Shown here one piece after another: positions 1-63,702 of a DNA stretch of 64,000 nt. Source of the DNA: Wolfiporia cocos. Its lineage: Eukaryota > Basidiomycota > Agaricomycetes > Polyporales > Phaeolaceae. The stretch spans positions 3,162,001-3,226,000 of the forward strand of contig JACCLO010000008.1 of NCBI GenBank assembly GCA_029448655.1, in the 5' to 3' direction. A model generated the notes under the pieces. That model made no database searches and was not told the origin of the DNA. It saw nothing but the letters and a program-made list of their open reading frames with translations. The translations under genes were made by a program, and so were the position numbers. Every line of letters begins with the position of its first letter. Position 1 is the first letter of the stretch.

Positions 1-532
1 CATGCATTGTTTGGTTACCGGTAAGGGAGCCAAACATGAAGATGGTCTGTGCGCAGACATAACTAATACAGCTAAGTCGTAAACTACAATAGACCATGTG
101 CGCCGGTAATGGCCGCACCAGTAAGAACGTTTGTTTGGACCGTAGGTCCATGTTGTGGAAGTGGCTGTAGCTACGTTAGTAAGCCATGCATGTGATTCTT
201 ATATACCGGTATCGGGATATGAGTAATCGTAAGGGCATTGGCATGTGATAACGAGCGGGCCGCTTATCCAATTGTACTGACATAGCCCGGTATCGGGATA
301 TGAGTAAAGCGTGTGACACCGGAGGTTAGTCCGCTGAGTCATTGACGCGTACAAGCGTATTATGTACGTGTTGTTATGACAAGTGGACGTATACCGCGTT
401 GTGTACGTGTTGTTTGGTTGCGTGTACGTGTAGACGGGCGCTTAGCAGCGTAAATGTCTACAGGGTTGTAGAAATACCAGATAAATAGGTAAAAATACGA
501 GAAAAATAGTGGCATGTCCCAAATCTGTGACA
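1..532 (-). repeat. 3' LTR of element A (truncated by window edge)
   Basis: Matches 9273-9804 with no length difference. It ends on the plus strand in tctgtgaca, so the minus-strand LTR begins TGTCACAG, a TG...CA type terminus. The other end lies left of the window. Confidence 0.95.
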
Positions 533-548
533 TTACCCCCTCTTCAGG
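533..548 (-). other. Polypurine tract of element A
   Basis: Plus strand ttaccccctcttc touches the LTR end. On the element strand this is a purine run (GAAGAGGGGGTAA) directly before the 3' LTR, where plus-strand DNA synthesis is primed in LTR elements. B and C have the related attacccccgcttt at the same place, and G has gtaccccctctttt. Confidence 0.85.
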
Positions 549-571
549 TTTCATTGTCCCTAATGGAACGA

Positions 572-1180: not shown

Positions 1181-1183
1181 TCA
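1181..1183 (-). other. In-frame TGA between pol and dUTPase of element A
   Basis: Plus strand tca, read as TGA in the pol frame. Codons on both sides are open in the same frame (pol from 5107, dUTPase to 572). It is either a readthrough stop, which would make a small fraction of Pol-dUTPase fusion, or a recent nonsense mutation. The next bases on the element strand are TCAGCT, not the CTA context of the best-known leaky UGA sites. Confidence 0.7.
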
Positions 1184-4100
1184 CCTGAGGGGAACATCCT
1201 GCATCGGAATAGGGTGTGAAGCCTTGTATTCCTGCAGAATGTCGTATGCCGAGTCGAGATCCGCTTCGCGTACCCAGGAGTCGTCGTTGATACCGAATCC
1301 CTTCCATCGGATTCTGTATTCAACTCTTCCTGCGCGGAGGCGATGATCTAAGATCTTCTCGACTTCCCATACTTCCTCGCCGTCGACCATTTCTGGTTGA
1401 GGCTCTGGTCTTTTCTGATGCACCGGGTCCTTGTACATGACTAACTTGGAAGCGTGAAATACGGGGTGATAATCCCTGTATTGCTCGTCCATGTGTACCC
1501 TAAAGGTGACCGGAGATAATTGTTCAATTATCTTAAATGGTCCCAAATAGCGTGGACTAAGACTTCTTTCGGAATCTTGCCAGCTACGGGCGTCAACGAG
1601 AACTTTGTCGCCGACCTTAAACGGTACCGAGCGCTTATGTTGATCGTAGTACCAAGACCAGCGTTCAGCAGCCAGTTTCATAGCTGCCTTAGCTTGTTCT
1701 TGTGCTGACCATCGTTCGTAAGCAATGACATTTAGGTCCGTGTATGGTGTTGGACGTAAATTCGTAGGTCCTGCGTTGGGGTGCCTTCCTAGCTCGACAA
1801 AGAATGGACTATTCTTTGTTGTCTCACTAGCCGCGTTGTTGTACGCGAATTCAGCCGTTGGGAGAAACCATGACCAATTATCCTTCTGAATAACATCGAT
1901 GTAACATTTAAGATATTGTTCCAGGATCTGGTTAACTCTCTCCGTCTGGCCATCCGCTTGCGGGTGATAGGCGGTTGTCATTGACCGTTGGATTCCCAAT
2001 TGCTCACACCATCCCTTGAATAAGGCGGCTGCGAATTGCGGGCCTCTATCCGAAATGATTTGTTTCGGAAGTCCGTGGTTCGGATAAATCCGAAGGTACA
2101 GGAGGTTCGCTAATTCTTTTGCCGTTATCTTGTCTGACGTGGGAATGAAGTGCGCTCGCTTGGTAAGCCGGTCCACTATTACCATAATAGCATTGAATTG
2201 TTTCAATTCGCCGCTGGGTGGTAAGTGGACGATAAGGTCAATTGTGACGGTGTCCCAAGGTGCTTCCGGAACTGGGAGCGGTTGCAGGGGTCCGTACGGG
2301 GTTTGGTTGTGGTTCTTCGTGCGTTGACATGTGTCACAACCTTCCACGTATTGCTTTACCATCGTGGTCATTCCAGGCCACCAGTAATTACGTGATAGAA
2401 GTTCATAGGTCTTCCATCGTCCGAAGTGTCCGGCAGTCACATGGTCATGATGTAACTCCAGAATCTTCGTGCGCAATTCTTTAGGCTCTTTTGGAACGTA
2501 CACTTTTCCTTGTCTGAGGAGTAATCCGGCCTCCATGTTCCATTCCTGGAGATCTTTACCGAATTCCTTGGGACCACTTTTCAGTAGTTCCTGGTAATCC
2601 TTGGTAATTTGATCGTCCATGAGGGCTTGTCGGATTTGTCGGAGAAGGTCCTCGTCGCCTGATTGTATCTCCTGCTGTGACGCTTCTAGCGCCCTAACCG
2701 TGAAATATTCCGGTTTCAGCAAAATTTGATCGCGATTATCGAGTTCCACCCCCTCTTCATGGTCTGGCCTCCGTGACAGAGGATCAGCCGTGAGCATTGT
2801 TTTACCGGGTTTGTGGCACATGGTGAAGTTGAACCTTGTCAGGTAAAGACTCCAACGTGCCTGTCTCCGGGTTAGCCATTGTGCCGATTTGAAATATGTC
2901 AGATTGAGATGATCCGACCATACTTCGAATTTGTGTGGATGTCCTTCGAGGTAATGTCTCCATTCCTCTAGAGCGCGGATGATTGCGAGCAACTCCTTAT
3001 CGTAAATCTCATAGTTCCTTTCGGGTGCTGATAGAGATTTCGAGTAAAAGGCTACCGGGTGCCAGAGCTTATCCTCCGAAGAGTATTGTGATAGCACTGC
3101 ACCAGTTGCGTAATCGGAAGAATCCGCTTCCACGCGGAACGGGGACTCCTGATCTGGGATCCGGAGTATTGGAGCCGATGTGAAAGCTTCCTTAAGAGTT
3201 TGGAAGGCTTCCGCTTGTTCGGGTCCCCAGTTCCATTGCGTGTTTTTCTTGGACAGTTCGGTTAACGGCTTAACCACTTTGGAGAAGTCTTTAATGAACC
3301 GCCGGTAGTAGTTGGCGAAGCCAACAAAGGCCTGGACGTCCTTCACCTTGGCAGGTGTAGGCCAGTCCATGACACCGGCTACCTTCTTAGGGTCCATTTC
3401 GACTTTTCCTTTGGAAATGATCATTCCCAGGTATTCAATACTGCTTTGTTCGAAGAAGCACTTTTCAGGCTTCGCGAACAAGTCGTTGTCTTGCAAGATT
3501 TGTAATACTTGCTTGACAATACGACGGTGTTCCAACAGGTCGTTTCCGAACACAAGGATGTCGTCTAGGTAGACAATGACCTTTCCTTCTCTGATAAGGT
3601 CACCTAGAATATCGTTCATCATGTGTTGGAACGTGCTGGGTGCATTACAAAAACCGAAGTACATGACTACAGCTTCGTAAAGGCGGTTAGGCGTAATGAA
3701 TGCGGTCTTCCATTCATCTCCCTCCTTGATTCTTACGTTGTTGTAACCCCAACGCAAGTCGAGCTTCGTGAATATCGAAGCCTGGCTAAGCTTATCGATA
3801 AGCTCGTCTATGCGTGGGAGAGGGTACCTATTTTTAATGGTCAAGTCGTTTACTTTTCGGTAATCGACTACCATTCGGGCTCCGCCGTCTTTTTTAGGGA
3901 CGAAGAAAACCGGGCTCGCGATCGGGGATTTTGAGTGTCGGATGTAGCCCTTCCGTAACTCTTCCTGGATCCACTGATCTAGCGAGTTTGCTTCCTGAGG
4001 AGACATCTTATATGCCTTACTCGGGGGCGGTAGTACCGCATCATCGGGAAAGTCGATGGCGTGGTCGTATGGTTTCCGCTCGGGCATCCTTTCGGATGCG

Positions 4101-5107
4101 CGTTGAGAAAATACCGTGGGACCAAACTCCTGGTATTCCTCCGGAACCAAGGATTTCCATTTCTGGAGATCCACATCTGTCAGGAATTCATCATCCGACT
4201 TCTCCGTTATTGACTGAATGGCGTCGATAAGGAGTTCCGTTCCTTCGTCAAGGGTGTTCACCCAAGCGACAAAGGGATTCTCAGGCTCCTCTAAGCCGAG
4301 AAAATCTATTGGAAAGTCGTTTATAATCTGATAGATGTTGCGAGGTTCGATTTCGTCTTCTTCCTCAGAAATCGAAACCCGTTTGCCATGTTTGCATTTT
4401 TCCGTACACCGATATGTGAAGGTTCCTTCTGGCCAGTTGAAGTCCGGGTTATGTTTCAGGAACCAATCATATCCGAGGATCACATCCGCATTCTGTACGT
4501 CCATTACGTACAAGAATTCGGTGGACTTGTGTTCCTCGTGCACCATATAAGCTTTTACTGCCATATTGATATTACCGGCGGTATTAGAGGTACCGTCGGC
4601 GTTGCGAATCTCGAGAGGCGAAGGTAGTTTCTGAGTGACTAGCTTCTCCTCATGGACGAGTTTCTTATCTATGACGCTTATGGATGCACCGGTGTCGATT
4701 AATGCCATGGCGTTTACTTTCTTTCCATATACCCACAGTTCCACTTCGATAGAGAACGATTTATTGTCGTCTCGAGAATCGTTTCCATGTACATTATACA
4801 AAGTGAAAAATTTAAGCGCGAGCGGGTCAGGGTGAAAGTATTGTACAGGAGGGGCACGTGTAGCTAGTGTCCGAGTCCTCCGGGCAAAGTCCATTGCCGA
4901 GCTGCCGAATATACCGAGATGGGATACCGGGTGACGTACGACCGCCTTATCTTCCCACAAGATAAGGGGTCTCTGTGAAGCCTCTTCGTAGAGGTGCACT
5001 TCTTCGGGGCGCTGTACACTCCCGGCCGCTGCGGGGCTGGTGTGTTCTTCACAGAACATCTTCGAGACGTGTAGTTGGGGCGAGGGGAACCGAGATGGTC
5101 CCGACAT
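1181..5107 (-). CDS. pol: Pol polyprotein of element A (protease, RT, RNase H, integrase, chromodomain)
   Basis: 1308 residues. In order: aspartic protease with ALIDTGASISVID near residue 133; reverse transcriptase with the YLDDILVFG catalytic motif near 511; RNase H (EADSSDYATGAVL, then YDKELLAIIRALEEWRHYL); integrase with an HHCC zinc domain (HHDHVTAGHFG, then CDTCQ, about 883-925) and the DDE triad at TIDLI (951), SDRGPQF (1017) and TERVNQ (1055); and a C-terminal chromodomain (EVEKILDHR ... RIRWKGF ... DDSWV, about 1244-1290), which in chromoviruses steers integration to modified histones. No dUTPase lies between protease and RT, unlike D and E. The frame overlaps the gag end by 59 nt and is offset by +1 (equivalent to -2) from gag, so expression needs a frameshift or reinitiation. 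No recognised slippery site was found. Confidence 0.97.
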   Translation of the reverse strand: MSGPSRFPSPQLHVSKMFCEEHTSPAAAGSVQRPEEVHLYEEASQRPLILWEDKAVVRHPVSHLGIFGSSAMDFARRTRTLATRAPPVQYFHPDPLALKFFTLYNVHGNDSRDDNKSFSIEVELWVYGKKVNAMALIDTGASISVIDKKLVHEEKLVTQKLPSPLEIRNADGTSNTAGNINMAVKAYMVHEEHKSTEFLYVMDVQNADVILGYDWFLKHNPDFNWPEGTFTYRCTEKCKHGKRVSISEEEDEIEPRNIYQIINDFPIDFLGLEEPENPFVAWVNTLDEGTELLIDAIQSITEKSDDEFLTDVDLQKWKSLVPEEYQEFGPTVFSQRASERMPERKPYDHAIDFPDDAVLPPPSKAYKMSPQEANSLDQWIQEELRKGYIRHSKSPIASPVFFVPKKDGGARMVVDYRKVNDLTIKNRYPLPRIDELIDKLSQASIFTKLDLRWGYNNVRIKEGDEWKTAFITPNRLYEAVVMYFGFCNAPSTFQHMMNDILGDLIREGKVIVYLDDILVFGNDLLEHRRIVKQVLQILQDNDLFAKPEKCFFEQSSIEYLGMIISKGKVEMDPKKVAGVMDWPTPAKVKDVQAFVGFANYYRRFIKDFSKVVKPLTELSKKNTQWNWGPEQAEAFQTLKEAFTSAPILRIPDQESPFRVEADSSDYATGAVLSQYSSEDKLWHPVAFYSKSLSAPERNYEIYDKELLAIIRALEEWRHYLEGHPHKFEVWSDHLNLTYFKSAQWLTRRQARWSLYLTRFNFTMCHKPGKTMLTADPLSRRPDHEEGVELDNRDQILLKPEYFTVRALEASQQEIQSGDEDLLRQIRQALMDDQITKDYQELLKSGPKEFGKDLQEWNMEAGLLLRQGKVYVPKEPKELRTKILELHHDHVTAGHFGRWKTYELLSRNYWWPGMTTMVKQYVEGCDTCQRTKNHNQTPYGPLQPLPVPEAPWDTVTIDLIVHLPPSGELKQFNAIMVIVDRLTKRAHFIPTSDKITAKELANLLYLRIYPNHGLPKQIISDRGPQFAAALFKGWCEQLGIQRSMTTAYHPQADGQTERVNQILEQYLKCYIDVIQKDNWSWFLPTAEFAYNNAASETTKNSPFFVELGRHPNAGPTNLRPTPYTDLNVIAYERWSAQEQAKAAMKLAAERWSWYYDQHKRSVPFKVGDKVLVDARSWQDSERSLSPRYLGPFKIIEQLSPVTFRVHMDEQYRDYHPVFHASKLVMYKDPVHQKRPEPQPEMVDGEEVWEVEKILDHRLRAGRVEYRIRWKGFGINDDSWVREADLDSAYDILQEYKASHPIPMQDVPLR

Positions 5108-7082
5108 TGGCGACGGTGGTGGCGGGGGCCGAGGGTCCTGCTGAGTTTGAGTCAGCCGTCACTTCTTCCCAGATCGTTCGGGCACGATACGTCTTGCCAT
5201 CCGCGGGGGGCGCCGAGTACGGCTTCTTGCCAGAAGCCTGTCCCTTTCCACTACCCGAAGGAGCAGCGGACCTCTTGTCAGAAGCTGCCGCATCCTTCGC
5301 CCTTTGTTGTTCGGCCCGCTGAGCGGCAGGCACGAACGTTCCCGCGGCCTTGTCTGCCGCAAGCTTAGGACACTTGTTGAAGTAGTGTCCCGTCTGCTTG
5401 CAGTAAGTGCAGACGGCGTTGGCGGTGTCGGCGGGGGCTTTGGCGGGCGCCTTTCCCTTGTCCTTTTTCTTCTCCGACTTCTTCGCAGAAGCGGAGGACG
5501 TCTCCTTCTTTTCGGCAGGTGCCGAGTCCTTCTTGCCGGCCTTTTCGAGGATCGACCCCTTGATCTTGTCTGGATATGACGTTTGGTACATTTCCAGAGC
5601 GAAGTCGATGAGGGGCTCGATGTCGGTCGGGGCCTTGAAGAACGGAGTCTTGCCGAGGACGTTTAAGGTGTCCTTGACCTTTTCCGGGAGAGTCTCGGTG
5701 AATTCCCACACCAGAGTCTCGTTGGCGGTTTCGGAGAGTCGGCCGAGGGTGCGGAACCGTTCGCAGTAATTGAAATAGTTCGATTCTGCCAGTTCCTTGC
5801 CCTTCGTGCCGTAGTAGCCGCGAATTTCCTTCTTCGCGATCTCCTTATCCGTCATTTTCCCATATTGCACCATTACGGATTTGGTGAAGTCCTCCCAGGT
5901 GCCGAGAGGTTCACCGTTTCCTGCCTTCTTGATGAGAGGCGAGAAAAACTTGTATGCGTCCCCTGTGACGCGGAAGAGGGCCGTGGTGATACGGTCATGG
6001 TCATCGTAGACCCTGAGCGTACCGAAGTACAGGCCCATCTTCTCCACCCATTCCTGTGCAGTCACCTTTCCAGATGACCCAGAGAATTCGGGGGGAGGGG
6101 GAATTTTCAGGTTTTGAGGCAGACCTGGAATCTGCGGGGCGACGGCTGCTGCAGCAGCGGCTGCAGCTTGAGCGGCGGCAGCGGCCTCGGCTGCTCTGGC
6201 TTGAGCATGACCGGGGGCCGGTGTCGGGTCTTCTGGTGGCGTGCGGACGCCGGGAGGGTTGGGAACGGAGGGATTCTTGCGAATCCTCCGGAGTTCCTCG
6301 TCAACCTTCTCCATGCGCTCGGCGAACGCATCCTCGAGGTCGTCGAGCCGGGACCGGTAGTCTTTCCGGAGCTCCTTTTCCAGCGTGGTGAACTTGGCGG
6401 TGTACTCCTGTCGGAGTTCCTTGCCGAGGTCCACCAGGGTGGACAGTACCTCGTTGCGGACCGAATTGACCGCTTCGTGTAGCTCGTCTTGGGCCTTTTG
6501 TTTGATGGCCCTGGATTGCCCAACCAGGGAGTCGATTCTGCCGTGGATTCGCTCCAGGCGAGCGTGCACCATTCGACCGAGGGTGTCGGTGGTGTCGTGG
6601 GAGATGGCCGCACTTCGTTGTACGGCGGCGTCGATGATCGGCCCATGTAGGGACCCATCCACCTTGTGGTGTTCCTCCTCAGGGAGGTACGCCTTGAGGT
6701 TGTTCTCGACAGCGACATTGGTCTGTCGTGTCGGACCCGAAAATTCCATTTCCAGGGTGGTGGCGGGCCCGATAGGGCGAGTTCGACGAGCCGGTGGGTA
6801 TCCGGCAATGGGGGAGCCTGGGCGTGTATCCATGGGGTTGGTCGGAGATTCCCTTTGCGGGGGAGCGAACTCCGGCATTTCTTCTTCCTCTTCCTCTTCC
6901 TCTTCCTCGCTGAGGTGTTCTAGTGTCACCAGCTGCTGGGTTCCCGAGGGACCAGCTTCCGGGGTCACCGGACCTTCTGAGCGGAGGCGCATCTTGCGGG
7001 GGGCGAGGGGGGTGCTAACGGAGGAGGTGGAAGACATTTTTGTGAATCTGTTTGTGACGAATGTTAGTTTCCGGTTACTCAT
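5049..7082 (-). CDS. gag: Gag of element A
   Basis: 677 residues forming the particle shell. The N-terminal part is basic and Ser/Pro-rich, followed by a run of nine Glu (about residues 60-68), a predicted coiled coil rich in Glu/Lys/Arg (about 165-265), an Ala-rich stretch (about 295-325), a gag/capsid-like core with EFSGSSGKVTAQEW (about 333) and WEDFTKSVMVQYG (about 395), a Lys/Ala/Ser-rich linker, and one CCHC zinc knuckle CTYCKQTGHYFNKC (about 557) for RNA binding. The start at 7082 is the first Met of the frame; a second Met 15 codons in is an alternative. Pol begins inside its last codons in another frame. Confidence 0.93.
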   Translation of the reverse strand: MSNRKLTFVTNRFTKMSSTSSVSTPLAPRKMRLRSEGPVTPEAGPSGTQQLVTLEHLSEEEEEEEEEEMPEFAPPQRESPTNPMDTRPGSPIAGYPPARRTRPIGPATTLEMEFSGPTRQTNVAVENNLKAYLPEEEHHKVDGSLHGPIIDAAVQRSAAISHDTTDTLGRMVHARLERIHGRIDSLVGQSRAIKQKAQDELHEAVNSVRNEVLSTLVDLGKELRQEYTAKFTTLEKELRKDYRSRLDDLEDAFAERMEKVDEELRRIRKNPSVPNPPGVRTPPEDPTPAPGHAQARAAEAAAAAQAAAAAAAAVAPQIPGLPQNLKIPPPPEFSGSSGKVTAQEWVEKMGLYFGTLRVYDDHDRITTALFRVTGDAYKFFSPLIKKAGNGEPLGTWEDFTKSVMVQYGKMTDKEIAKKEIRGYYGTKGKELAESNYFNYCERFRTLGRLSETANETLVWEFTETLPEKVKDTLNVLGKTPFFKAPTDIEPLIDFALEMYQTSYPDKIKGSILEKAGKKDSAPAEKKETSSASAKKSEKKKDKGKAPAKAPADTANAVCTYCKQTGHYFNKCPKLAADKAAGTFVPAAQRAEQQRAKDAAASDKRSAAPSGSGKGQASGKKPYSAPPADGKTYRARTIWEEVTADSNSAGPSAPATTVANVGTISVPLAPTTRLEDVL

Positions 7083-9092: not shown

Positions 9093-9103
9093 AGATTTGT
9101 TCT
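9093..9103 (-). other. Self-priming primer-binding site of element A
   Basis: agatttgttct, two bases from the 5' LTR edge, is the exact reverse complement of agaacaaatct at 9228-9238 in the LTR. No tRNA 3'-CCA complement (TGG start) is present. This matches the Tf1 arrangement, in which the first ~11 nt of the transcript prime reverse transcription. Confidence 0.85.
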
Positions 9104-9105: not shown

Positions 9106-9804
9106 TGACACAGACTAGACTGTGGGACTCACACTGTAACCTAATAAGCGACTTGAAGGAGTTGCTGGAGGTTGGTGAGGAGGCTAGTGGGCGCAAGCAG
9201 AGATGATATGTAACTGTGCGAATGCAGAGAACAAATCTAAGGCTTATCCGCAGTGATAGCCCTACTTATATACATGCATTGTTTGGTTACCGGTAAGGCA
9301 GCCAAACATGAAGATGGTCTGTGCGCAGACATAACTAATACAGCTAAGTCGTAAACTACAATAGACCATGTGCGCCGGTAATGGCCGCACCAGTAAGAAC
9401 GTTTGTTTGGACCGTAGGTCCATGTTGTGGAAGTGGCTGTAGCTACGTTAGTAAGCCATGCATGTGATTCTTATATACCGGTATCGGGATATGAGTAATC
9501 GTAAGGGCATTGGCATGTGATAACGAGCGGGCCGCTTATCCAATTGTACTGACATAGCCCGGTATCGGGATATGAGTAAAGCGTGTGACACCGGAGGTTA
9601 GTCCGCTGAGTCATTGACGCGTACAAGCGTATTATGTACGTGTTGTTATGACAAGTGGACGTATACCGCGTTGTGTACGTGTTGTTTGGTTGCGTGTACG
9701 TGTAGACGGGCGCTTAGCAGCGTAAATGTCTACAGGGTTGTAGAAATACCAGATAAATAGGTAAAAATACGAGAAAAATAGTGGCATGTCCCAAATCTGT
9801 GACA
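9106..9804 (-). repeat. 5' LTR of element A
   Basis: 699 bp, plus-strand ends tgacacag and tctgtgaca. A TATATAAG box on the minus strand (about 9273-9265) lies about 35 nt upstream of the self-primer segment at 9228-9238, which places the transcript 5' end there. Followed by aaaat. Confidence 0.95.
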
Positions 9805-17025: not shown

Positions 17026-17036
17026 AGACTTGTCTT
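17026..17036 (-). other. Self-priming primer-binding site of element G
   Basis: agacttgtctt beside the 5' LTR is the exact reverse complement of aagacaagtct at 17129-17139 inside that LTR (and 10225-10235 in the other copy). Confidence 0.83.
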
Positions 17037-17037: not shown

Positions 17038-17967
17038 TGACACAAGCAACAAACTAGCACTCAACCGGGGGAAGGGGGCTCGCTCAAAGGCGCCTTCCAG
17101 GTCCCGGGACCACTAGCCGTCAAAGGCCAAGACAAGTCTGAGGTTGTCGCTCAGACTGTCTGGCATATATACTCCTAACCTATTTGTACATGTTTGTACA
17201 GTGGCTCAGAGGCCTCTACGTACTGGTATCTAACTGGCTATGAGCTTCGGGCCGGTAATGGCATCGGAGCGCTGGTATGCGAGGATGTCCATGGCGACGT
17301 AGCGTATAAGGGGCGGATCTAAGGAGTAGCCAATCTGTCGGGTTCGATCGGTGGTTCTCGTCGATCGTAGGTGCGCCGGTAATGGCGGGGTTCTAAGTCC
17401 GTGATCGGGCGTGGTCTGCCACGATCGGGGTGTAGCGCTCTGTGACTGGTAGGGTTCTCAGTCGTGCAGAGCCTGGGGTTATTATCCCTGCCTGTTGTAC
17501 TCGTAGGTCGGGGTGCGTATGGGGTATAGTATAATGTCTATGCCAGTAATGGCGAGTGTCCATGCGGTAGGGACGCGAGGCATCAGGTTTAGTGTTCTGG
17601 GTCACGTGTGAGCATAGACCGTGCCCCTAGTCGTCGTATAGCGTAGTGTACGGTGGCGGTTTAGCCTGGGTCTGTATAAGGCGTACCGTCGTGCTATTGT
17701 AGCCTGTTGGGCTCTAGGGGTCGGCTCGTGACTCCGGGGTTTAGGGACTAGGCAGCGTATGGTTCTTGCTGCCGGGACTTGGACTGAGTTCAGGGTTAGA
17801 CTGCTGGTGGCCTGCTAGTGCCCGTAGTGTCCTGTATAGCGGAGGGCTTCTACTAGCGTTGCCGTGGGGTTTCAGCTGGGCTCGGATAGAGTGCTGTAGT
17901 GTGCGTATGGCGTGAGTGGGGTGCCAAGCTAGCGTGTTCTACTAGGCTTTGAAATTGGCTTGTGACA
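17038..17967 (-). repeat. 5' LTR of element G
   Basis: 930 bp. A TATATA box near 17166-17171 lies about 30 nt upstream (minus strand) of the self-primer segment 17129-17139. Right flank ggttt is the target duplication. Confidence 0.95.
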
Positions 17968-55235: not shown

Positions 55236-55944
55236 TGTTACGGTTATTTTTAATTTTTCGAGTATCGACAGAACTCACCATTGGACGAATACGATACAGG
55301 GACTTGTTGCGCAACCAACTCCCCTGGCTACTCGTGACTCTACTGGGCGCATCCCCAGTTGCACTAGTCTATAGAACGCATTTCATCGCTGGCAGATCCA
55401 ACTCTGCCACCGTTTCATGTTCATCGTTTATTAGTTGACAGATGGCGTTCAACCGCCATCATTCCTATCTATCGTCTCAGATATATCACTACATACTTAT
55501 CAAACGTTTGGTACTATAGCGTAGATAGTAGCGGTGACATCTGGGACAGGCTTGACCCCTGAAAGCTAACGTAGTATATAAACTCATGTACTTACTGTCG
55601 AGGCTCTTCAGCTCGACCTTGTTGTATAAACAAGAAGTCTTATACTCGTTCTCAAACGTAGGAAACTACGCTCAGTATTTCTCACTCGAGCAACCGAACG
55701 ACTAAGTCCTCGAAGTGCACACTGACTTCTCGGACTTAGGCGAGTCTTATATTCTATTCGACTCGCACCTGAACAGATTATATCCTCTAACGCGTATTGG
55801 ATATTAACCGATCTCCTAAGAACTTCACTTAGGACCCGAAGGCATCTAACGAGTATTTGCCTTGCATACGGCTACGTGCCTACGTGCAGAAGAACGATCT
55901 ATATTCGCGACTCGAATATACGAACGGGTATTCGACCCGTAACA
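55236..55944 (+). repeat. 5' LTR of element E
   Basis: TGTTACGG to CCCGTAACA. TATATAAA near 55576, self-primer segment agctcgacctt at 55610-55620, about 33 nt downstream. Confidence 0.96.
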
Positions 55945-55945
55945 G

Positions 55946-55956
55946 AAGGTCGAGCT
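55946..55956 (+). other. Self-priming primer-binding site of element E
   Basis: aaggtcgagct, exactly complementary to agctcgacctt at 55610-55620; same sequence as in D. Confidence 0.87.
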
Positions 55957-55990: not shown

Positions 55991-57838
55991 ATGATATTTG
56001 GACCAGAATTCCCAGCACGACTGATTGAACTCTTGCCCGAGGACATTCAGGGAGTCTACAGACTCAACCGATACGAGTGGACTGACACCATTGGAGCCTT
56101 CCGTAACCGCGGAGGAATTGTTGTCATTCCAAGAGAAGATAGGGCATCGAAGTGGGTAGAAGTATACCCCTCCGCAAGAACGACCGCTTGGGAAATAACG
56201 CGTGAAGCGTTCGAACGATTCGGAGAAATCCCTCCGATGTCAACCGCGACGTTGACCGAAAACGAAACCGAAACCATCAACAGAACCTTCGATGCCGATG
56301 GAAATACGAATCAGCCTTCGGGCGCCACAGGAATGGCAGGAATTGAGCGCATCGGAGATGATGGGAGAAATCCTGGAAACTTTACAGGAACAGATAACAG
56401 CCAGACCGGAGGACAGGACCCTCCAGGATTTATATCTGCTTTTGCGCAGAGTGGGATTGGGCCTATGGCTGGAGGAACAAACCTCTTTGGAAACCCCCCA
56501 CAGAACGCACCCGGAATGGGTAGCGGAGGAAATCCGTCTTGGACTAGCCCAAGCGGAGGAATGGGAATGACAAACCCAGGAACATGGCCTTCAGGCCTAT
56601 TTGGACGAACCTCCGCAGGTACAAGCGGAGGAGGACTGGGAGGAAACTTCGGACTCGGAGGAGGGAATGCCCCCCCTCCTGGAGGACTCGGAGGAGGAAC
56701 CCCCACGAACCCCGGAGGAGGAAACCCTGGAGGGAACCCAGGGAACCCCGGAGGAAACCCAGGAAACCCGGGTGGAGGATACCCGGGAGGAGGAGGACCC
56801 CCGGGAGGCCCTCCACCACCGAATGCGCCGCAGCCTCAACCTCCGGTGCCGAACCCGTATTACCGACCCCCGATGATAAAGATCAATCCCCCAGACGTAT
56901 TTGACGGGGAACGATCCGACATGCAGAACTTCATAAACCAGTGCAATTCCTGGTTTACGATGTACGAAACGTCGTTCCAGAACGACGTTCAGAGAGTGAT
57001 CTTTATCCTCTCTTATATTTCGAACAAGGGGAAAACGGGCCAATGGAAACAGAACTATCACCGGGTTTATACGAACCCCCTGACGAAGCGATTCTTCCCG
57101 CCTAGTCTCGCACAATTCGATGCAGACTTTCAGAAAGCCTTCGGAGCCATCGAAGAGGTACAGAAGGCGCGGAAAAAAATCCTGGAAGTAGCCCAGGATA
57201 GAAAGGACGTCGATGATTATATCACCGAGTTCAACAACTTGGCCGGAAAGGCCCAGTACGATCGATACAGTGCGGACGGAAACGCGTTGCTCATAACCCT
57301 CTTCGAGAAAGGGTTACCCGAACACACGACCCGATACATCATCGGGGTACGGCCGCTGCCGGCGACCATTGACGAATGGCAGTCCGCTGCCTCGTACTAT
57401 GAAAATACGTACAAGATATTCTTGAAACGGGATAAGCCGTTTATCAAGAAGAAGGCTTGGCAAGCCTCGAACCAGAATAACGGACGCACTAGTGCTCCTC
57501 AGACGACCACACCGAAAGATCCGAATGCGATGGATGTAGATCGAATGACCACCCAGGAAAGAGACGATCACATCAAGAAGGGCAAGTGTTTCACCTGCCA
57601 TCAGCCAGGGCATATGTCGCGAGATTGCCCGAAGAAGCCAAGGAAGCCAGCCCGCCCTAGGCGGACTACTCGAAAGACCAAAGAAGAAGAAGCCGAGCAA
57701 GAAGCCCGCATCGAAGAAGTCTCTGAGGAAGAGACTGAGTACATCACCGCTAACAGAGCGGTCACAGCAATTAGGGCTCTGAAAGCCAAGAACCCCGAGC
57801 TCCTAGCACGGCTCGTAGAAGAACAGGATTTTGCCTAG
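55991..57838 (+). CDS. gag: Gag of element E
   Basis: 615 residues. An N-terminal domain as in D (FPARLIELLPEDIQ, YEWTD, WEITREAFERFGE), a long Gly/Pro/Asn-rich low-complexity region (about 100-285), a gag core (PDVFDGERSDMQNFINQCNS near 300, FILSYISNKGKTGQWKQ), one CCHC knuckle CFTCHQPGHMSRDC (about 532), a basic then acidic tail, and a C-terminus (KAKNPELLARLVEEQDF) matching D. The start is the first Met, 46 nt after the LTR. Pol is in the -1 frame, open through the gag end. Confidence 0.95.
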   Translation: MIFGPEFPARLIELLPEDIQGVYRLNRYEWTDTIGAFRNRGGIVVIPREDRASKWVEVYPSARTTAWEITREAFERFGEIPPMSTATLTENETETINRTFDADGNTNQPSGATGMAGIERIGDDGRNPGNFTGTDNSQTGGQDPPGFISAFAQSGIGPMAGGTNLFGNPPQNAPGMGSGGNPSWTSPSGGMGMTNPGTWPSGLFGRTSAGTSGGGLGGNFGLGGGNAPPPGGLGGGTPTNPGGGNPGGNPGNPGGNPGNPGGGYPGGGGPPGGPPPPNAPQPQPPVPNPYYRPPMIKINPPDVFDGERSDMQNFINQCNSWFTMYETSFQNDVQRVIFILSYISNKGKTGQWKQNYHRVYTNPLTKRFFPPSLAQFDADFQKAFGAIEEVQKARKKILEVAQDRKDVDDYITEFNNLAGKAQYDRYSADGNALLITLFEKGLPEHTTRYIIGVRPLPATIDEWQSAASYYENTYKIFLKRDKPFIKKKAWQASNQNNGRTSAPQTTTPKDPNAMDVDRMTTQERDDHIKKGKCFTCHQPGHMSRDCPKKPRKPARPRRTTRKTKEEEAEQEARIEEVSEEETEYITANRAVTAIRALKAKNPELLARLVEEQDFA

Positions 57839-57927: not shown

Positions 57928-60900
57928 ATGGCGCTGGCAAAACCCGTGAAGTGCAATGCACTAATTGACTCAGGAGCAATGTCGAACCTGATCCACAGCA
58001 GAGTGGTAGAAAAATACAAGGTGCCCACGCAACCCTTGAAGAACCCGATCATCGTCAAAAACGTTGACGGAACGGAAAACAAAGATGGGCGAATAGACCG
58101 AGAAGCCACCATACTACTACGATATCCGAAGACCCAGAAAACGCGAAAAGTCCGATTCCTCGTAGGATCAATCGGAACAGAAAACATGATTCTAGGGTAT
58201 GGATGGCTAAAAGATGAAAACCCCACAATCGACTGGAAGGACCAAACAGTCGATATACGATCGATACTAGGGGCAGAAGAAAAGAAACAGGAAGCCACAA
58301 TCCGAATGGATACGGTGGAGATGGTAGTTGCCCCAGAAGGAAGAATTCCAACAAGGGGGACCCAAGAAGCTGCGGGGTATGACCTATACGCCGCAGAAGA
58401 AACCGAGATTCCCGCCGGAGGATGGAAACTCGTCTCCACAGGAGTAAAGATGAAGATCCCAAAGGGATCGTATGGAAGGCTGGCCGGACGATCGGGCAAC
58501 ACCCTCAGACACGGATTGGTAGTACAAGCCGGAATCATAGACTCGGACTACCGAGGAGACGTCGGAGCCATTGTCTTCAACTACTCGGACAAAGCGCATA
58601 GAATTATCCCGGGCATGCGAATAGCCCAGATAATTTTCGAACGACACCTCACCCCTGACATCTTAGAGGTCAAAGACCTAGATGAAACAGAACGAGGGGA
58701 GAAAGGGTTCGGATCCACGGACCAGCCAGAAGAAACAGCGCAGCGGCTCTATACTCCCGAAGAGTACGAAGCGATCCGACGCTTCGCGAAAGATAACCCT
58801 AGGATCATAGGGAAGAAAGGGGAAACGCGAAAGAAGTTCCGAACAAAGATACAAATCATCAACGCTGTCAGGAAAGCGCTAACGAAGTCTCAGGAATTCG
58901 CACAGAAAACCCCCGAACGAGAAAGAACGATTGAAGAGATGGTCCCGAAATACCTACTGGACTTCGCCAAGGTGTTTAGTAAGGAATCCGCAGCAGCGTT
59001 CCCCCCATCGAGACCATGGGACCACGCCATCGAATTAAAACCCGATTTCGTGCCGAAAGACTGCAAAGTCTATGCACTCTCACCCAAAGAACAACAGGCG
59101 CTGGACGAATTCCTGAAAGAAAACCTGGCAAAAGGTTTCATAGTCCCTTCAAAATCCCCGATGGCGTCACCATTCTTTTTCGTCCCAAAGAAAGACAGCG
59201 GCCTGCGACCCTGTCAAGATTATCGATATCTGAACGAAGGAACGATAAAGAACGTCTATCCCTTGCCACTGATCTCAGAACTCCTGGAAAAGCTAAAAGG
59301 AGCAAAGGTCTTCACAAAAATGGACCTTAGAGCGGGATACAACAACGTGCGAATCAAAAAGGGGGACGAATGGAAAGCGGCCTTCAAAACAAACCGAGGG
59401 TTGTACGAGCCCACGGTTATGTTTTTCGGATTGTGCAATGCACCCGGGACCTTCCAAGCAATGATGAACGAAATCTTGAAAGAAGAAATCCTCGAAGGAT
59501 GGGTGCTTGTTTATATGGACGACATCCTCATTTTCTCAGAAAACGAGGAAGTACACAAGGAACGGGAACGGCGGATCCTTCAGAGATTGGTGGATAACCA
59601 TCTCTTTGTGAAACCCGAGAAATGCGCCTTCGGTGTCGACAGAGTCGAATTTCTGGGACTAGTCATCACCCCAGGAAATATCCAGATGGACCCAGCGAAA
59701 CTCAATGGGATTAAGGAGTGGCCGACTCCCCGAAATCTCAAAGAAGTCAGATCCTTCCTAGGATTTGCGAACTTTTATCGAAAATTTATCGATCACTACT
59801 CTACGCACGCCCGACCCTTGGTAGACCTCACAAGAACGGTCACGGGGACAGGATTCCAATGGACGGAGAAAGAACAGAAAGCATTCGAATTCATAAAGAA
59901 AGCATTCACGACGGCGCCCGCACTGGGGACACCAGACAAAGAGAAACCGTTCATCCTCGAAACAGACGCATCTCAGTTCGCCACAGGAGCAGTACTGAAA
60001 CAAACGGATGAAACAGGGCGAGAACGGCTGGTGGGATATCTCTCACAATCCCTGACATCAACAGAACGGAACTACGAAATCTACGATCGCGAACTACTCG
60101 GAATAGTCCGAGCATTAGAAGAATGGCGACACCTATTAGAAGGAGCACCGCATCGGATCTTGATCCGAAGCGATCATCAGAACCTGACGTACTGGAGAAG
60201 CGCACAGCGCCTAAATCGGCGACAAGCGAGATGGCATCTATTCCTTTCGCAATTCGACCTGAAATTGCAGCACGTCCCCGGAAGGAAACTAGTCATGGCC
60301 GACACGCTTTCCAGGTTGTACCACCTGGACGAAAGCAACAAAGACAACGAGGGAATCACCATGATTCCAGACGAACTCGTCGTCCACGCAATCCAGATCC
60401 CGATTATCGATCGGATCAAGAACGCCCACGATCGAGATGAATCTGCGGAACAGGCGATCCGCGCCCTGGAAGGAACAGGCGAATTCCCCGCGAGAACCAC
60501 CGCGGATGAATGGCAACAAACAGATGGGATACTGCTCTACAGGGGCAGGATGTACGTGCCGAAGGATGAGGGCCTTCGACGAGACGTCATCTCAAAATAC
60601 CATGACACGATCCCGGCCGGACACCCTGGGATCTGGGGTACAACAGTACAGGTTAAGACCCATTTTTGGTGGCCCGACATGGGAACAATGATAGCGGAAT
60701 ACGTCCGGGGCTGTGCAATCTGTCAACAGATGAAACCTGATAGAAATCCGCTGAAACCCCCTTTGCAGCCAATACCGACACGGGAAGACGCCCTCCCCTT
60801 CTCACAATGCTCGGTCGATTTTGTCACCGACCTGCCAAGAGTCGGAAAGTATGACTCCATGATGGTAATTGTCGACCACGGCCTATCCAAGGCCATCTCT

Positions 60901-62982
60901 CTCACCCCATGCGACAAAACGATCACGAGCGAAGGGGCCGCAGAAATATTCCATCAGAAAATATACTCACAATACGGCATACCCCGAAAGATCATTTCAG
61001 ACAGGGGACCGCAGTTCGCATCGAAACTGTTCAAGGAATTATGCAAGCTGCAGGGAACGGAATCTGCGATGAGTACGGCGTACCATCCACAGACCGACGG
61101 ACAAACGGAAAGAATGAATCAACAGATCGAAGTGTACCTTCGTATCTATTGCATGAACGACCCTTTCCAATGGGTACAACGACTACCTGACGTCGAATTT
61201 GCGCACAACACCAAGCGAACCGAGAACCGACCTGCGCCCCTTGAAATAATCTTGGGTTACATTCCAAGGGGATTCCCAGACTACGACAGGGTAGGAAACG
61301 TCCCGGCAGCAGTCGACAGGATCAAGAAGATCAAGGAGGCGCGAAAGATGGCATTCAGCGCGCACGAACTAGCTCAGAAAAGAATGGCAGGACGTTTCCT
61401 CCGAGAATTACCAAAGCTCGAGAAAGGAGACAAGGTTTGGCTTGACGCAAAGAACCTAACCATCCCCTACGAATCCAACAAGCTAGCACCAAAAAGAGAA
61501 GGACCCTTCACCATCACAGAAAAGATGGGACCCACGACATATCGGTTGCAGTTACCAGCGAACTGGAAAATTCATCCGGTATTCCACGCTGCCTTACTAA
61601 AACCATTCAAAGAAACAAGGGTGCACGGACCCAATTACTTACGGCCGCCACCTGATATCATCAAGGGACAGGAGGAATACGAAGTCGAAGCTATCCTAGC
61701 TGACAGATGGCGAGGAAAGAAGCATCAGTACTTTGTCAAGTGGAAAGGCTATGCTACAGCTGACAACTCATGGGAAGACGAAGGAAATTTGGAACACTCC
61801 AAAGAGATGATAAAAGACTACCACAGGACGAGAGTCAGGGCAGCCCCAACACTCGAAAACCGAACAGTAATAGTATGTCGACGACTCGCCACCAACTCCC
61901 TCGCCGCGCTCCGACCCCTCACGGCGATGCGGGACACAGGGAAGGACGACCGAGAGGTACGCCGCAGAGGAGGTACTCCCCCCAACACCTACAGATCAGA
62001 CACGCCCTGCTCTGGTACAGGGCCGAGGGACCTTTTGCTGGCCGAGCCGATGGCTGGACGGCCCTCTTCGACATCGCGCAGGATCTCACCCACGTCTACA
62101 GCTCGTACCAGAATATCACCGAGGACCTCATCCGAATGGAGGGGCAGATCAGAGCACAGAGAGAGGGACTCGAGTTACTCACCGACAGACTTATCGACCG
62201 ACTGGCCGCCACCACGACGGCCCGACTACGACACGCGCTCAACGACTTCGAGGATCGCGAGCACGCTACTCCCAACCGACCCGAATACGTACCACGACCC
62301 GCCCGCTTTTTCACCACCGACAAACGACGCCGAGTTGCAAGGCCGTTTAATTTTATGGAGGGCGATAGAGTATTATTTCCACTGCCTACCGAGACTCAGA
62401 GGGCCCGCCGAACAGGAGTTAGAGACCCGACGCCACGTATTCCTGGTATGGGAGGCAACGGGAGACGTGAACCACCTGCACGCCCGACGAGCCCTAGGAC
62501 TACCCCAGAACGACAGCGAAGAGCGAATAGCACGCCGCCTATTCGACGATCTCCATCAGTGCAGAGCATTACCCGCGAGGAGTATGAGCGAGGTGCGAGG
62601 GAGCACAAACGAGACACCGCCTCCTTACCCACGTGGGCGCAACGGAACCTCCACTGCGCCGCTCACCACTGGAGATATCGACACAACAAATATCTCAGAG
62701 ATATCCCTTCTCTACGGGTACCAGCGAGGTCCTCGCCTGAACAACCCTGTCGACAGTGCGGATCCGCTAGCCACTGGATCCTCGACTGCCCCGACTATAT
62801 TTGCAGAACTTGTGGGCTCAATCAACCAGGTCATCGACAGAATGAATGCCGCCAACACTTCGTATGGCGAACTCCTACGACCCCGTCCCTCAGCGGGAAC
62901 GGCGACATCTATAACGAACAGGACGCCGAGGCACTCTGAGGAGAGGAACTTGGAAAATTTGTCGAGGCCGACAAATGTCTAG
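57928..62982 (+). CDS. pol: Pol polyprotein of element E with dUTPase between protease and RT
   Basis: 1684 residues from ATG 57928; upstream codons in frame (AAHVITSFEKNRSLFIPV) are conserved with D, so entry by -1 frameshift from gag is likely. Protease ALIDSGAMSN (about 11); dUTPase with AAGYDLYAA (149), GRLAGRSGNT (an unusual Gly for the usual Pro in motif 2), GIIDSDYRGDV, GMRIAQIIFE, GFGSTD (257); RT YMDDILIFS (528); RNase H (ETDASQFATGAVL); integrase with HPGIWGT/CAICQQ zinc residues and DDE at SVDFV (962), SDRGPQF (1023), TERMNQ (1060); chromodomain (YFVKWKGYATADNSWED, about 1277). The remaining ~370 residues overlap ORF3; ELQGRLILW and ARRALGLP there are conserved with D. Confidence 0.97.
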   Translation: MALAKPVKCNALIDSGAMSNLIHSRVVEKYKVPTQPLKNPIIVKNVDGTENKDGRIDREATILLRYPKTQKTRKVRFLVGSIGTENMILGYGWLKDENPTIDWKDQTVDIRSILGAEEKKQEATIRMDTVEMVVAPEGRIPTRGTQEAAGYDLYAAEETEIPAGGWKLVSTGVKMKIPKGSYGRLAGRSGNTLRHGLVVQAGIIDSDYRGDVGAIVFNYSDKAHRIIPGMRIAQIIFERHLTPDILEVKDLDETERGEKGFGSTDQPEETAQRLYTPEEYEAIRRFAKDNPRIIGKKGETRKKFRTKIQIINAVRKALTKSQEFAQKTPERERTIEEMVPKYLLDFAKVFSKESAAAFPPSRPWDHAIELKPDFVPKDCKVYALSPKEQQALDEFLKENLAKGFIVPSKSPMASPFFFVPKKDSGLRPCQDYRYLNEGTIKNVYPLPLISELLEKLKGAKVFTKMDLRAGYNNVRIKKGDEWKAAFKTNRGLYEPTVMFFGLCNAPGTFQAMMNEILKEEILEGWVLVYMDDILIFSENEEVHKERERRILQRLVDNHLFVKPEKCAFGVDRVEFLGLVITPGNIQMDPAKLNGIKEWPTPRNLKEVRSFLGFANFYRKFIDHYSTHARPLVDLTRTVTGTGFQWTEKEQKAFEFIKKAFTTAPALGTPDKEKPFILETDASQFATGAVLKQTDETGRERLVGYLSQSLTSTERNYEIYDRELLGIVRALEEWRHLLEGAPHRILIRSDHQNLTYWRSAQRLNRRQARWHLFLSQFDLKLQHVPGRKLVMADTLSRLYHLDESNKDNEGITMIPDELVVHAIQIPIIDRIKNAHDRDESAEQAIRALEGTGEFPARTTADEWQQTDGILLYRGRMYVPKDEGLRRDVISKYHDTIPAGHPGIWGTTVQVKTHFWWPDMGTMIAEYVRGCAICQQMKPDRNPLKPPLQPIPTREDALPFSQCSVDFVTDLPRVGKYDSMMVIVDHGLSKAISLTPCDKTITSEGAAEIFHQKIYSQYGIPRKIISDRGPQFASKLFKELCKLQGTESAMSTAYHPQTDGQTERMNQQIEVYLRIYCMNDPFQWVQRLPDVEFAHNTKRTENRPAPLEIILGYIPRGFPDYDRVGNVPAAVDRIKKIKEARKMAFSAHELAQKRMAGRFLRELPKLEKGDKVWLDAKNLTIPYESNKLAPKREGPFTITEKMGPTTYRLQLPANWKIHPVFHAALLKPFKETRVHGPNYLRPPPDIIKGQEEYEVEAILADRWRGKKHQYFVKWKGYATADNSWEDEGNLEHSKEMIKDYHRTRVRAAPTLENRTVIVCRRLATNSLAALRPLTAMRDTGKDDREVRRRGGTPPNTYRSDTPCSGTGPRDLLLAEPMAGRPSSTSRRISPTSTARTRISPRTSSEWRGRSEHRERDSSYSPTDLSTDWPPPRRPDYDTRSTTSRIASTLLPTDPNTYHDPPAFSPPTNDAELQGRLILWRAIEYYFHCLPRLRGPAEQELETRRHVFLVWEATGDVNHLHARRALGLPQNDSEERIARRLFDDLHQCRALPARSMSEVRGSTNETPPPYPRGRNGTSTAPLTTGDIDTTNISEISLLYGYQRGPRLNNPVDSADPLATGSSTAPTIFAELVGSINQVIDRMNAANTSYGELLRPRPSAGTATSITNRTPRHSEERNLENLSRPTNV
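61875..62939 (+). CDS. Overlapping ORF3 of element E: helical domain plus two C-terminal zinc knuckles
   Basis: 354 residues from the ATG shared with D (the frame is open further up, to an ATG at 61770 not conserved in D). Features: LQIRHALLWYRAEG; a helix-rich part (VYSSYQNITEDLIRMEGQIR); an Arg/Pro-rich linker; SITREEYERG; YLRDIPS; then two zinc knuckles, CRQCGSASHWILDC and CRTCGLNQPGHRQNEC, near the C-terminus. It lies entirely within pol but in another register. Likely an RNA/DNA-binding accessory protein, perhaps a second nucleocapsid-like product; no signal peptide or membrane helix, so not an envelope. Expression route unknown. Confidence 0.78.
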   Translation: MSTTRHQLPRRAPTPHGDAGHREGRPRGTPQRRYSPQHLQIRHALLWYRAEGPFAGRADGWTALFDIAQDLTHVYSSYQNITEDLIRMEGQIRAQREGLELLTDRLIDRLAATTTARLRHALNDFEDREHATPNRPEYVPRPARFFTTDKRRRVARPFNFMEGDRVLFPLPTETQRARRTGVRDPTPRIPGMGGNGRREPPARPTSPRTTPERQRRANSTPPIRRSPSVQSITREEYERGAREHKRDTASLPTWAQRNLHCAAHHWRYRHNKYLRDIPSLRVPARSSPEQPCRQCGSASHWILDCPDYICRTCGLNQPGHRQNECRQHFVWRTPTTPSLSGNGDIYNEQDAEAL

Positions 62983-62993
62983 GGAGGGGCTGA

Positions 62994-63702
62994 TGTTACG
63001 GTTATTTTTAATTTTTCGAGTATCGACAGAACTCACCATTGGACGAATACGATACAGGGACTTGTTGCGCAACCAACTCCCCTGGCTACTCGTGACTCTA
63101 CTGGGCGCATCCCCAGTTGCACTAGTCTATAGAACGCGTTTCATCGCTGGCAGATCCAACTCTGCCACCGTTTCATGTTCATCGTTTATTAGTTGACAGA
63201 TGGCGTTCAACCGCCATCATTCCTATCTATCGTCTCAGATATATCACTACATACTTATCAAACGTTTGGTACTATAGCGTAGATAGTAGCGGTGACATCT
63301 GGGACAGGCTTGACCCCTGAAAGCTAACGTAGTATATAAACTCATGTACTTACTGTCGAGGCTCTTCAGCTCGACCTTGTTGTATAAACAAGAAGTCTTA
63401 TACTCGTTCTCAAACGTAGGAAACTACGCTCAGTATTTCTCACTCGAGCAACCGAACGACTAAGTCCTCGAAGTGCACACTGACTTCTCGGACTTAGGCG
63501 AGTCTTATATTTTATTCGACTCGCACCTGAACAGATTATATCCTCTAACGCGTATTGGATATTAACCGATCTCCTAAGAACTTCACTTAGGACCCGAAGG
63601 CATCTAACGAGTATTTGCCTTGCATACGGCTACGTGCCTACGTGCAGAAGAACGATCTATATTCGCGACTCGAATATACGAACGGGTATTCGACCCATAA
63701 CA
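62994..63702 (+). repeat. 3' LTR of element E
   Basis: 709 bp; ends CCCATAACA (CpG changed to CpA relative to the 5' copy). Right flank caagg is the target duplication. Confidence 0.96.

What the first reader, a model, noticed from the sequence alone, without database searches (positions are those of the whole stretch)
1..63702. All six LTR-bounded elements use a self-priming site, and the primer pairs covary between families
Seen: each element has an 11-12 nt site 1-2 bases inside the 5' LTR that is exactly complementary to a segment of the same LTR about 30-35 nt downstream of a TATA box. Pairs: A 9093-9103 with 9228-9238; G 17026-17036 with 17129-17139; B 28929-28940 with 29066-29077; C 38145-38156 with 38278-38289; D 40359-40369 with 40181-40191; E 55946-55956 with 55610-55620. 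The sequences differ (agatttgttct, agacttgtctt, agttctattctt, agttctattatt, aaggtcgagct), so the pairing is kept by compensatory change; B and C differ at two positions on both sides. Known: Tf1 of fission yeast primes reverse transcription with its own transcript 5' end. Inference: the same mechanism operates here, including in elements without any coding sequence.
Basis: partly seen in the sequence, partly recalled or inferred. Interest (0 to 1): 0.88.

Follow-up and report, generated by a model that had tools for sequence, protein, structure and literature searches.

The report
Self-priming retrotransposons with matched primer pairs
Six mobile elements in this fungal genome each carry a landing site that matches the probable start of their own transcript, so they can probably start copying themselves without borrowing a host tRNA; in the copies examined the two matching sites change together, and although the mechanism is known from fission yeast, here it also seems to serve elements without recognisable genes.

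Summary
In detail: all six pairs are exact reverse complements, starting after a 1-2 nt spacer past the 5' LTR. The host genome is held (64.4 Mb, probably an agaricomycete), so covariation could be tested widely. Of 94 sites examined, 84 are real 5' LTR junctions and 77 of those keep an exact match of 11 nt or more in their own LTR. They form 14 distinct primer:PBS pairs; swapped combinations give 0 of 182 matches of 11 nt. For B and C, 163 sites are matched and 0 mismatched. Control: three Copia elements of the same genome have a PBS matching a host tRNA-Met, not their LTR. Best explanation: Tf1/sushi-type self-priming, a known mechanism. Additions: elements without recognisable coding sequence (B, C and G, recently moved; V5, undated) carry their own pairs, implying priming within the family; and a hairpin at the inferred U3/R border covaries, its arm reaching into the primer in 12 of 15 representatives. 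Transcript starts and cleavage were not tested.

The parts
9093..9103 (-). PBS of element A
   Evidence: Exact 11-nt complement of 9228-9238; 2-nt spacer to the LTR end at 9106
9228..9238 (-). Putative self-primer (RNA 5' end) of A
   Evidence: TATA first T 34 nt upstream
9106..9804 (-). 5' LTR of A; the 3' LTR is cut by the window edge (1-532)
   Evidence: 1 difference in 532
1181..5107 (-). Pol of A: protease, RT, RNase H, integrase, SH3_Tf2-1, chromodomain
   Evidence: Pfam
5049..7082 (-). Gag-like ORF of A with zinc knuckle
   Evidence: Pfam gag and zinc-knuckle hits below cut-off, CCHC motif
17026..17036 (-). PBS of element G
   Evidence: LTR end at 17038
17129..17139 (-). Putative self-primer of G
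17038..17967 (-). 5' LTR of G; 3' LTR 10134-11063, TSD AAACC
   Evidence: 5 differences in 930, TSD
17130..17161 (-). U3/R hairpin of G, its 3' arm inside the primer
   Evidence: Fold, 9 primer nt paired upstream
28929..28940 (-). PBS of element B
   Evidence: 149 exact copies with LTR end genome-wide
29066..29077 (-). Putative self-primer of B
28942..30039 (-). 5' LTR of B; 3' LTR 23967-25064, TSD AAATC; no recognisable coding sequence inside
   Evidence: 0 differences in 1098; no polymerase match
29079..29105 (-). U3/R hairpin of B, ending just before the primer
   Evidence: Fold, covariation in the B/C families
38145..38156 (-). PBS of element C
38278..38289 (-). Putative self-primer of C
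38158..39116 (-). 5' LTR of C; 3' LTR 33291-34249, TSD CTTTG; no recognisable coding sequence inside
   Evidence: 0 differences in 959; 45 of 50 B/C gaps are not multiples of 3
38289..38318 (-). U3/R hairpin of C
40359..40369 (+). PBS of element D
40181..40191 (+). Putative self-primer of D
39824..40357 (+). 5' LTR of D; 3' LTR 47197-47730; flanks AGCGC and CATGG, so no TSD
   Evidence: 3 differences in 534
40168..40189 (+). U3/R hairpin of D
   Evidence: Fold
42160..47151 (+). Pol of D: protease, dUTPase, RT, RNase H, integrase, SH3_Tf2-1, chromodomain
   Evidence: Pfam; of 28 genome matches scored, 19 are at 96% identity or more, itself included
40403..42052 (+). Gag of D with zinc knuckle
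   Evidence: Pfam zinc knuckle above cut-off, gag model just below it
55946..55956 (+). PBS of element E
55610..55620 (+). Putative self-primer of E
55236..55944 (+). 5' LTR of E; 3' LTR 62994-63702, TSD CAAGG
   Evidence: 3 differences in 709, TSD
55597..55617 (+). U3/R hairpin of E
   Evidence: Fold
57928..62982 (+). Pol of E
   Evidence: 62% identical to D pol over nearly its whole length; Pfam not run on it
55991..57838 (+). Gag of E with zinc knuckle
   Evidence: Pfam

Best explanation
These are Ty3/gypsy chromovirus-type LTR retrotransposons, and non-autonomous LTR elements some of which resemble them, that prime reverse transcription with the 5' end of their own RNA, as Tf1 does. Inferred steps: RNA starts at the LTR segment about 33 nt after TATA; its first 11-12 nt pair with the PBS just past the LTR; RNase H cuts after nt 11-12; the freed end primes minus-strand synthesis into U5. 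Shown here: the geometry, exact complementarity, covariation and lack of a tRNA match among the tRNAs compared. I further infer that the match renews itself: when plus-strand strong-stop DNA copies the attached primer, the daughter's PBS becomes a copy of the primer, so a change at the LTR start reaches the PBS within two rounds. That would explain why mismatched pairs are rare.
For: Six exact pairs. 77 of 84 real junctions keep an exact match of 11 nt or more; 14 distinct pairs, own LTR 11-12 nt, 0 of 182 swapped combinations at 11 nt or more. B/C: 163 matched, 0 and 0 mismatched. 9 of 11 primer positions vary among the 14 pairs, compensated in each. TATA first T 32-37 nt upstream in 14 of 15 representatives. 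The predicted minimum-energy fold joins 10-12 primer nt to the PBS in 15 of 15 leaders. tRNA-primed Copia control in the same genome, 3 elements. Chromodomain and SH3_Tf2-1 in A and D pol.
Against: No transcript ends, cleavage or cDNA seen. 7 of 84 real junctions lack the exact match: L045, L046, L047, L048, L103, L106 (LTRs 76-89% identical to the reference) carry substitutions on one or both sides, and L079 keeps only a 77-nt LTR end. V2 has no TATA at the usual place. The two flanking duplexes of the Tf1 'pretzel' were not found as a rule. No RT tree with Tf1 was made. The primer-copying step is inference from recalled retroviral biology.
Confidence: 0.92

Rival explanations
1. A host tRNA or tRNA half is the primer and the LTR match is incidental.
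For: Copia elements of the same genome do have a PBS matching a host tRNA-Met, 12-13 nt, so tRNA-half priming probably exists in this host.
Against: Gypsy PBSs match 30 tRNA loci by 5-8 nt, the level of random 14-mers, and that tRNA-Met by 3-5 nt; none has TGG in the first 8 nt. Only 30 of 49 tRNA hits, plus the tRNA-Met, were compared, and 49 is itself a lower bound. Incidental matching cannot give 14 of 14 cognate pairs.
Confidence: 0.02
2. The complementary pairs are kept as a long-range RNA helix (packaging, dimerisation or translation control), not as primer and PBS.
For: Covariation alone shows a helix, not priming; the leaders fold well (z -1.2 to -6.5).
Against: One arm sits where an LTR element's PBS must be and the other where TATA places the RNA start; the tRNA comparison found no other PBS in the first 14 nt; the arrangement equals that described for Tf1 and Tj1 (PMC7175516, PMC4600332).
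Confidence: 0.05
3. Non-autonomous elements are primed in trans by RNA of an autonomous partner.
For: B and C share 74-77% identity with A over about 220-250 nt of the internal 5' region, so A may supply their proteins.
Against: B and C primers and PBSs differ from A's, and each matches its own LTR only. Priming between copies of one family is not excluded.
Confidence: 0.03

Closest known systems
Tf1/Tf2 of Schizosaccharomyces pombe
   Same: First 11 nt of the Tf1 RNA complementary to the PBS, cut between nt 11 and 12 (PMC7175516, section 20 part 1 of 2 read); chromodomain; Ty3/gypsy pol.
   Different: Here 11 or 12 nt; LTRs of 534-1098 bp in the window against 358 and 349; dUTPase in D, E and beside A; no consistent pretzel side duplexes; a covarying U3/R hairpin that I have not seen described for Tf1.
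Tosmo1-3, Tcry1 and Tj1 of other fission yeasts
   Same: Each has its own self-primer and PBS and can form the pretzel fold, so several related elements with separate pairs are already in print (PMC10085805, passages; Tj1 also PMC4600332, section 3 read).
   Different: Coding elements; no swapped-pair or genome-wide covariation count in the passages seen.
Tcn1 of Cryptococcus neoformans
   Same: Basidiomycete Ty3/gypsy element proposed to self-prime (PMC7175516, passage).
   Different: Sequence not compared here.
Plant Tcn1 clade and TAR elements with predicted self-primers
   Same: Predicted in a systematic survey from an LTR region complementary to 10 bp or more starting 0-5 bp past the 5' LTR (PMC6317226, passages).
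   Different: Prediction element by element; no cognate-versus-swapped test in the passages seen.
PosPlaTy3 elements of Postia placenta
   Same: Basidiomycete chromoviruses with dUTPase between PR and RT, or at the C end of Pol (PMC2864245, passages), as in D/E and beside A.
   Different: Primer not discussed for them in the passages seen.

Membership tests
Tf1/sushi group of chromoviruses | PR-RT-RH-IN order of Ty3/gypsy | tested here: met
   A and D pol by Pfam; E by 62% identity to D
Tf1/sushi group of chromoviruses | Chromodomain at the end of integrase | tested here: met
   PF00385 in A and D pol
Tf1/sushi group of chromoviruses | PBS complementary to the element's own LTR/RNA start, no tRNA match | tested here: met
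   tRNA part on 30 of 49 hits plus one tRNA-Met
Tf1/sushi group of chromoviruses | RT phylogeny groups with Tf1, sushi, Maggy | not tested
   Tf1 and sushi sequences were not at hand; some agaricomycete hits are named 'Tf2' by their sources
Tf1/sushi group of chromoviruses | Three-duplex 'pretzel' leader | tested here: inconclusive
   Central duplex in 15 of 15; side duplexes not clearly better than with shuffled R, best z -2.27 of 30 tests
Tf1/sushi group of chromoviruses | RNA starts at the self-primer; RNase H cut after nt 11 | not testable with these tools
   Only TATA spacing of 32-37 nt in 14 of 15
Non-autonomous LTR elements (LARD/TRIM-like) | LTRs, PBS, PPT and TSD but no coding region | tested here: met
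   B, C, G: TSD and near-identical LTRs, purine tract before the 3' LTR of B, C, G, no tblastn match to A/D/E proteins, no Pfam match above cut-off in six ORFs of 120 aa or more; B/C indels mostly not in threes. V5: internal 789 nt, longest stop-free frame 132 codons, on the antisense strand; its TSD not examined
Non-autonomous LTR elements (LARD/TRIM-like) | PBS complementary to a tRNA (usual for TRIMs) | tested here: not met
   Self-complementary PBS instead

The most novel reading that the evidence does not exclude
In these elements the primer sequence is held in a covarying network, not a single pair. Besides the PBS it pairs (12 of 15 representatives) with an arm between TATA and the primer, forming a hairpin across the inferred U3/R border that also covaries. 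If RNA starts at the primer, this hairpin exists only in the 3' LTR of the genomic RNA, where it would hide the second copy of the primer and so ensure that only the true 5' end is used. Together with copying of the primer into the daughter PBS, the pairs form a self-renewing, family-private priming code that even elements without coding sequence carry.
Probability: 0.3. Interest if true: 0.7.

Novelty: new member of a known kind. Interest (0 to 1): 0.5.

Why it matters
Self-priming was demonstrated for Tf1 and elsewhere is mostly inferred from complementarity. One genome here offers at least 14 cognate pairs and about 1,180 PBS-pattern matches against 24 in the controls, which turns the inference into a covariation test. 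It suggests how a primer/PBS pair can drift while staying matched, and that elements without recognisable coding sequence can carry a priming system of their own. Annotation that looks only for tRNA-matching PBSs would miss these.

Tried and rejected
Considered and rejected: tRNA priming; chance complementarity; an artefact of LTR repeats (sense and reversed controls 5-8 nt). Side duplexes of the pretzel: no general support. The U3/R hairpin is not unusually stable against other windows of the same LTR (fractions as stable 0.018-0.68), so only its covariation is used. One search was given 11 of the 13 distinct V rows (the rows of L043 and of L058/L075/L078, near copies of rows used, were left out); one search was given all 10 distinct B/C rows. 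I drew both structures from these same sequences. The permutation (0 of 2000) and shuffles ignore relatedness of families. In one search the number of pairs with double changes (227 of 500 shuffles reach it) and of further pair types (450 of 500) are not above shuffles; covariation score and cells paired are (0 of 500). Relatives in other hosts: two scans of viral contigs found none; no relatives of this host are held. The papers of Atwood-Moore 2006 and Lin & Levin 1997 were not held; I know them by title and recall only. Statements on what is unpublished rest only, a library of open papers, seen as listings.

Not done: RT tree with Tf1; structure of V1-V4 and V6-V8 elements; Pfam on E pol; 19 of 49 tRNA hits. 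Loci were chosen by hand from the first listed places, variants preferred. That the tRNA-Met is the initiator is my recall of its sequence; ARAGORN gives tRNA-Met only.

Full report
The observation. The six claimed pairs were checked letter by letter and all are exact reverse complements. Self-comparison and end motifs give the 5' LTRs: A 9106-9804, G 17038-17967, B 28942-30039, C 38158-39116 (minus strand), D 39824-40357, E 55236-55944 (plus strand). Between the LTR's terminal CA and the site lie 1 nt, or 2 nt in A. Four of the five elements with both ends in view have 5-bp target duplications (G, B, C, E); D has none; A's far LTR is cut by the window. LTR pairs differ by 5 of 930 (G), 0 of 1098 (B), 0 of 959 (C), 3 of 534 (D), 3 of 709 (E) and 1 of 532 (A), so all six probably moved recently, those without recognisable coding sequence included.

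The host. The window lies in a held genome of 64.4 Mb in 76 contigs. Searching D pol residues 380-1290, the named full-coverage hits of highest identity are agaricomycete (Sparassis 59%, Lyophyllum 55%); the two top scores are amphibian proteins covering about 60% at 41%, and an ascomycete hit covers all at 38%. I infer an agaricomycete.

Covariation genome-wide. The pattern of B's LTR end plus PBS occurs 149 times, reversed control 0. A looser pattern for the TGTGTCA ends has 622 matches against 20 in the control (some places match twice), one for D/E-like ends 412 against 4. The patterns asked only for the LTR end and parts of the PBS, not for the LTR partner. I took 88 such sites (8 returned, 80 fetched, chosen by hand from the first places listed, variants preferred) and the six of the window: 94 in all. 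77 have an exact antisense match of 11 nt or more in the 1350 nt before the LTR end. Of the 17 others, 10 are not 5' LTR junctions: L059, L060, L062, L064, L076 have no LTR match, L073 and L077 only distant pieces, L039, L044, L061 a whole LTR followed by unrelated sequence. The remaining 7 are real: six diverged copies with substitutions on one or both sides (L045, L046, L047, L048, L103, L106) and one with only a 77-nt LTR end (L079). So 77 of 84.

The 77 fall into 14 distinct primer:PBS pairs. Each PBS matches its own LTR by 11-12 nt; in the 182 swapped combinations none reaches 11 (mean 6.1, maximum 9); sense and reversed controls give 5-8 nt. Among the 14 primers 9 of 11 positions vary; position 1 is always A and position 11 always T. 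Close pairs differ by one or two compensated changes: G/G2, B/C, V2/V3, V5/V6/V7, V7/V8, V4/V7. For B and C a genome-wide count was made with exact 12-nt primer, 100-130 nt of spacing and exact PBS: 163 matched, 0 with B primer and C PBS, 0 with C primer and B PBS. Copies with other changes or spacing are outside this count.

A control within the genome. Of four Copia (RVT_2) loci fetched, three show LTRs (L119, L121, L122; none found in L120). Directly past each lies TTATGAGCCCTG. It is complementary over 12-13 nt to a host tRNA-Met, found by a pattern typed from recall of the initiator's anticodon arm and confirmed as tRNA-Met by ARAGORN and as tRNA by Rfam; its longest match in its own LTR is 4-5 nt. 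The 14 gypsy PBSs match that tRNA by 3-5 nt and 30 other tRNA loci by 5-8 nt, random 14-mers by 7.0 on average. Only 30 of the 49 tRNA hits were compared. The method therefore tells the two priming modes apart.

Elements and proteins. A and D pol hold protease, RT, RNase H, integrase, SH3_Tf2-1 and chromodomain; D also dUTPase between protease and RT; E pol is 62% identical to D. B, C and G have no tblastn match to the A/D/E proteins and no Pfam match above cut-off in the six ORFs tested; 45 of 50 gaps between B and C interiors are not multiples of three. V5 (L058) is a tandem with a 561-nt LTR and a 789-nt interior whose longest stop-free frame is 132 codons, on the antisense strand; it was not dated. 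A G2 site at C1:496275 lies about 4.3 kb before an RT on the same strand, so G2 is probably autonomous. Since B, C, G and V5 carry pairs of their own, the primer most likely comes from RNA of the same family.

Structure. In 15 of 15 leaders (14 primers, D and E apart) the predicted fold includes 10-12 primer nt paired to the PBS. TATA's first T lies 32-37 nt before the primer in 14 of 15; V2 has TATA only at 53. The 'pretzel' of Tf1 has two more duplexes beside the PBS (PMC10085805, passages); simple tests find no general counterpart. Many LTRs end in a predicted hairpin beside the PBS.

A second, unexpected feature: a hairpin across the inferred U3/R border. In 12 of 15 representatives (not A, B, C) its 3' arm takes in 4-9 primer nt. 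In the V families (11 of 13 distinct rows) 5 of 9 pairs show changes on both sides, 96.9% of cells pair, covariation score 0.347 against 0.110 in shuffles and at most 0.180 in slid controls. In B/C two pairs change on both sides, in 6 cells; covariation score and cells paired exceed all shuffles, but the number of doubly changed pairs and of pair types do not. The arm near TATA fits its own primer better than other families' arms (0 of 2000 permutations reach it). These tests partly ignore relatedness, and I drew the structures from the same sequences. The hairpin is not especially stable for these LTRs. By the folds and the distances its left arm starts before the primer, some 4-10 nt after TATA's first T in A, B, C and G, about 13 nt in V5, and 22-24 nt in D and E. 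If RNA starts at the primer, that arm is absent from the RNA's 5' end and the hairpin exists only in its 3' LTR. My reading, at about 0.3, is that it masks the 3' copy of the primer sequence. A DNA-level role or an upstream transcript start is not excluded, least of all in D and E.

How it most likely works. RNA starts at the segment; the first 11-12 nt fold back on the PBS; RNase H cuts; RT extends. All of this is inferred from Tf1 (PMC7175516 section 20 part 1 of 2 read; Levin's papers recalled or seen as references only). The rarity of mismatched pairs is best explained if the daughter's PBS is copied from the primer, as retroviral PBSs are copied from the tRNA (recalled).

Compared with what is known. 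Self-priming is described as common to the Tf1/sushi group in fungi, vertebrates and some plants (PMC6317226, PMC10085805, passages), several fission-yeast elements each have their own self-primer (PMC10085805, passages), and it was proposed for Tcn1 of a basidiomycete (PMC7175516, passage). So the mechanism is known and these are most likely new members. New to me, within the open papers searched (listings), are the cognate-versus-swapped test across one genome, self-priming elements without recognisable coding sequence that carry their own pairs, and the covarying U3/R hairpin. dUTPase in such elements is known (PMC2864245, passages).

Noticed in passing
window 42160-47151, 57928-62982, and about 581-1099 minus strand: dUTPase domain between protease and RT in D (Pfam) and, by homology, E; in A a dUTPase-like stretch lies just after the pol stop codon in the same frame. 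Known from Postia elements.
   Followed up: partly
G000 contigs C21, C22, C30, C31, C35, C36, C38, C39, C40, C49, C50, C51: B-family PBSs recur at steps of about 4.9-5.0 kb, two or three in a row, in some contigs at near-identical positions (C21/C49, C38/C43): tandem LTR-internal arrays, perhaps one repeated region of the assembly.
   Followed up: no
G000:C5:1591409-1595472: Four PBS-pattern matches at 1351-bp spacing; L058 shows the first unit to be V5, a short non-autonomous element with shared LTRs.
   Followed up: partly
window 39117-39823 and 30359-31065: A 707-bp stretch is 100% identical in inverted orientation, between elements C and D and beyond B; with D's missing TSD this suggests recombination or gene conversion.
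   Followed up: no
window 7184-8107 minus strand: ORF of 307 aa upstream of A's gag-like ORF without any Pfam match.
   Followed up: partly
window 50202-51020 and 19191-19965: Distantly related ORF pieces (272 aa ORF, 33-34% identity); no Pfam match to the longer one; DNA nearby is also repeated in inverted orientation.
   Followed up: no
window 29043-29070 minus strand, primer end and following R: In B and C a predicted hairpin directly after the primer takes in primer nt 8-12; its far arm changes with primer position 10, so three sites change together.
   Followed up: partly
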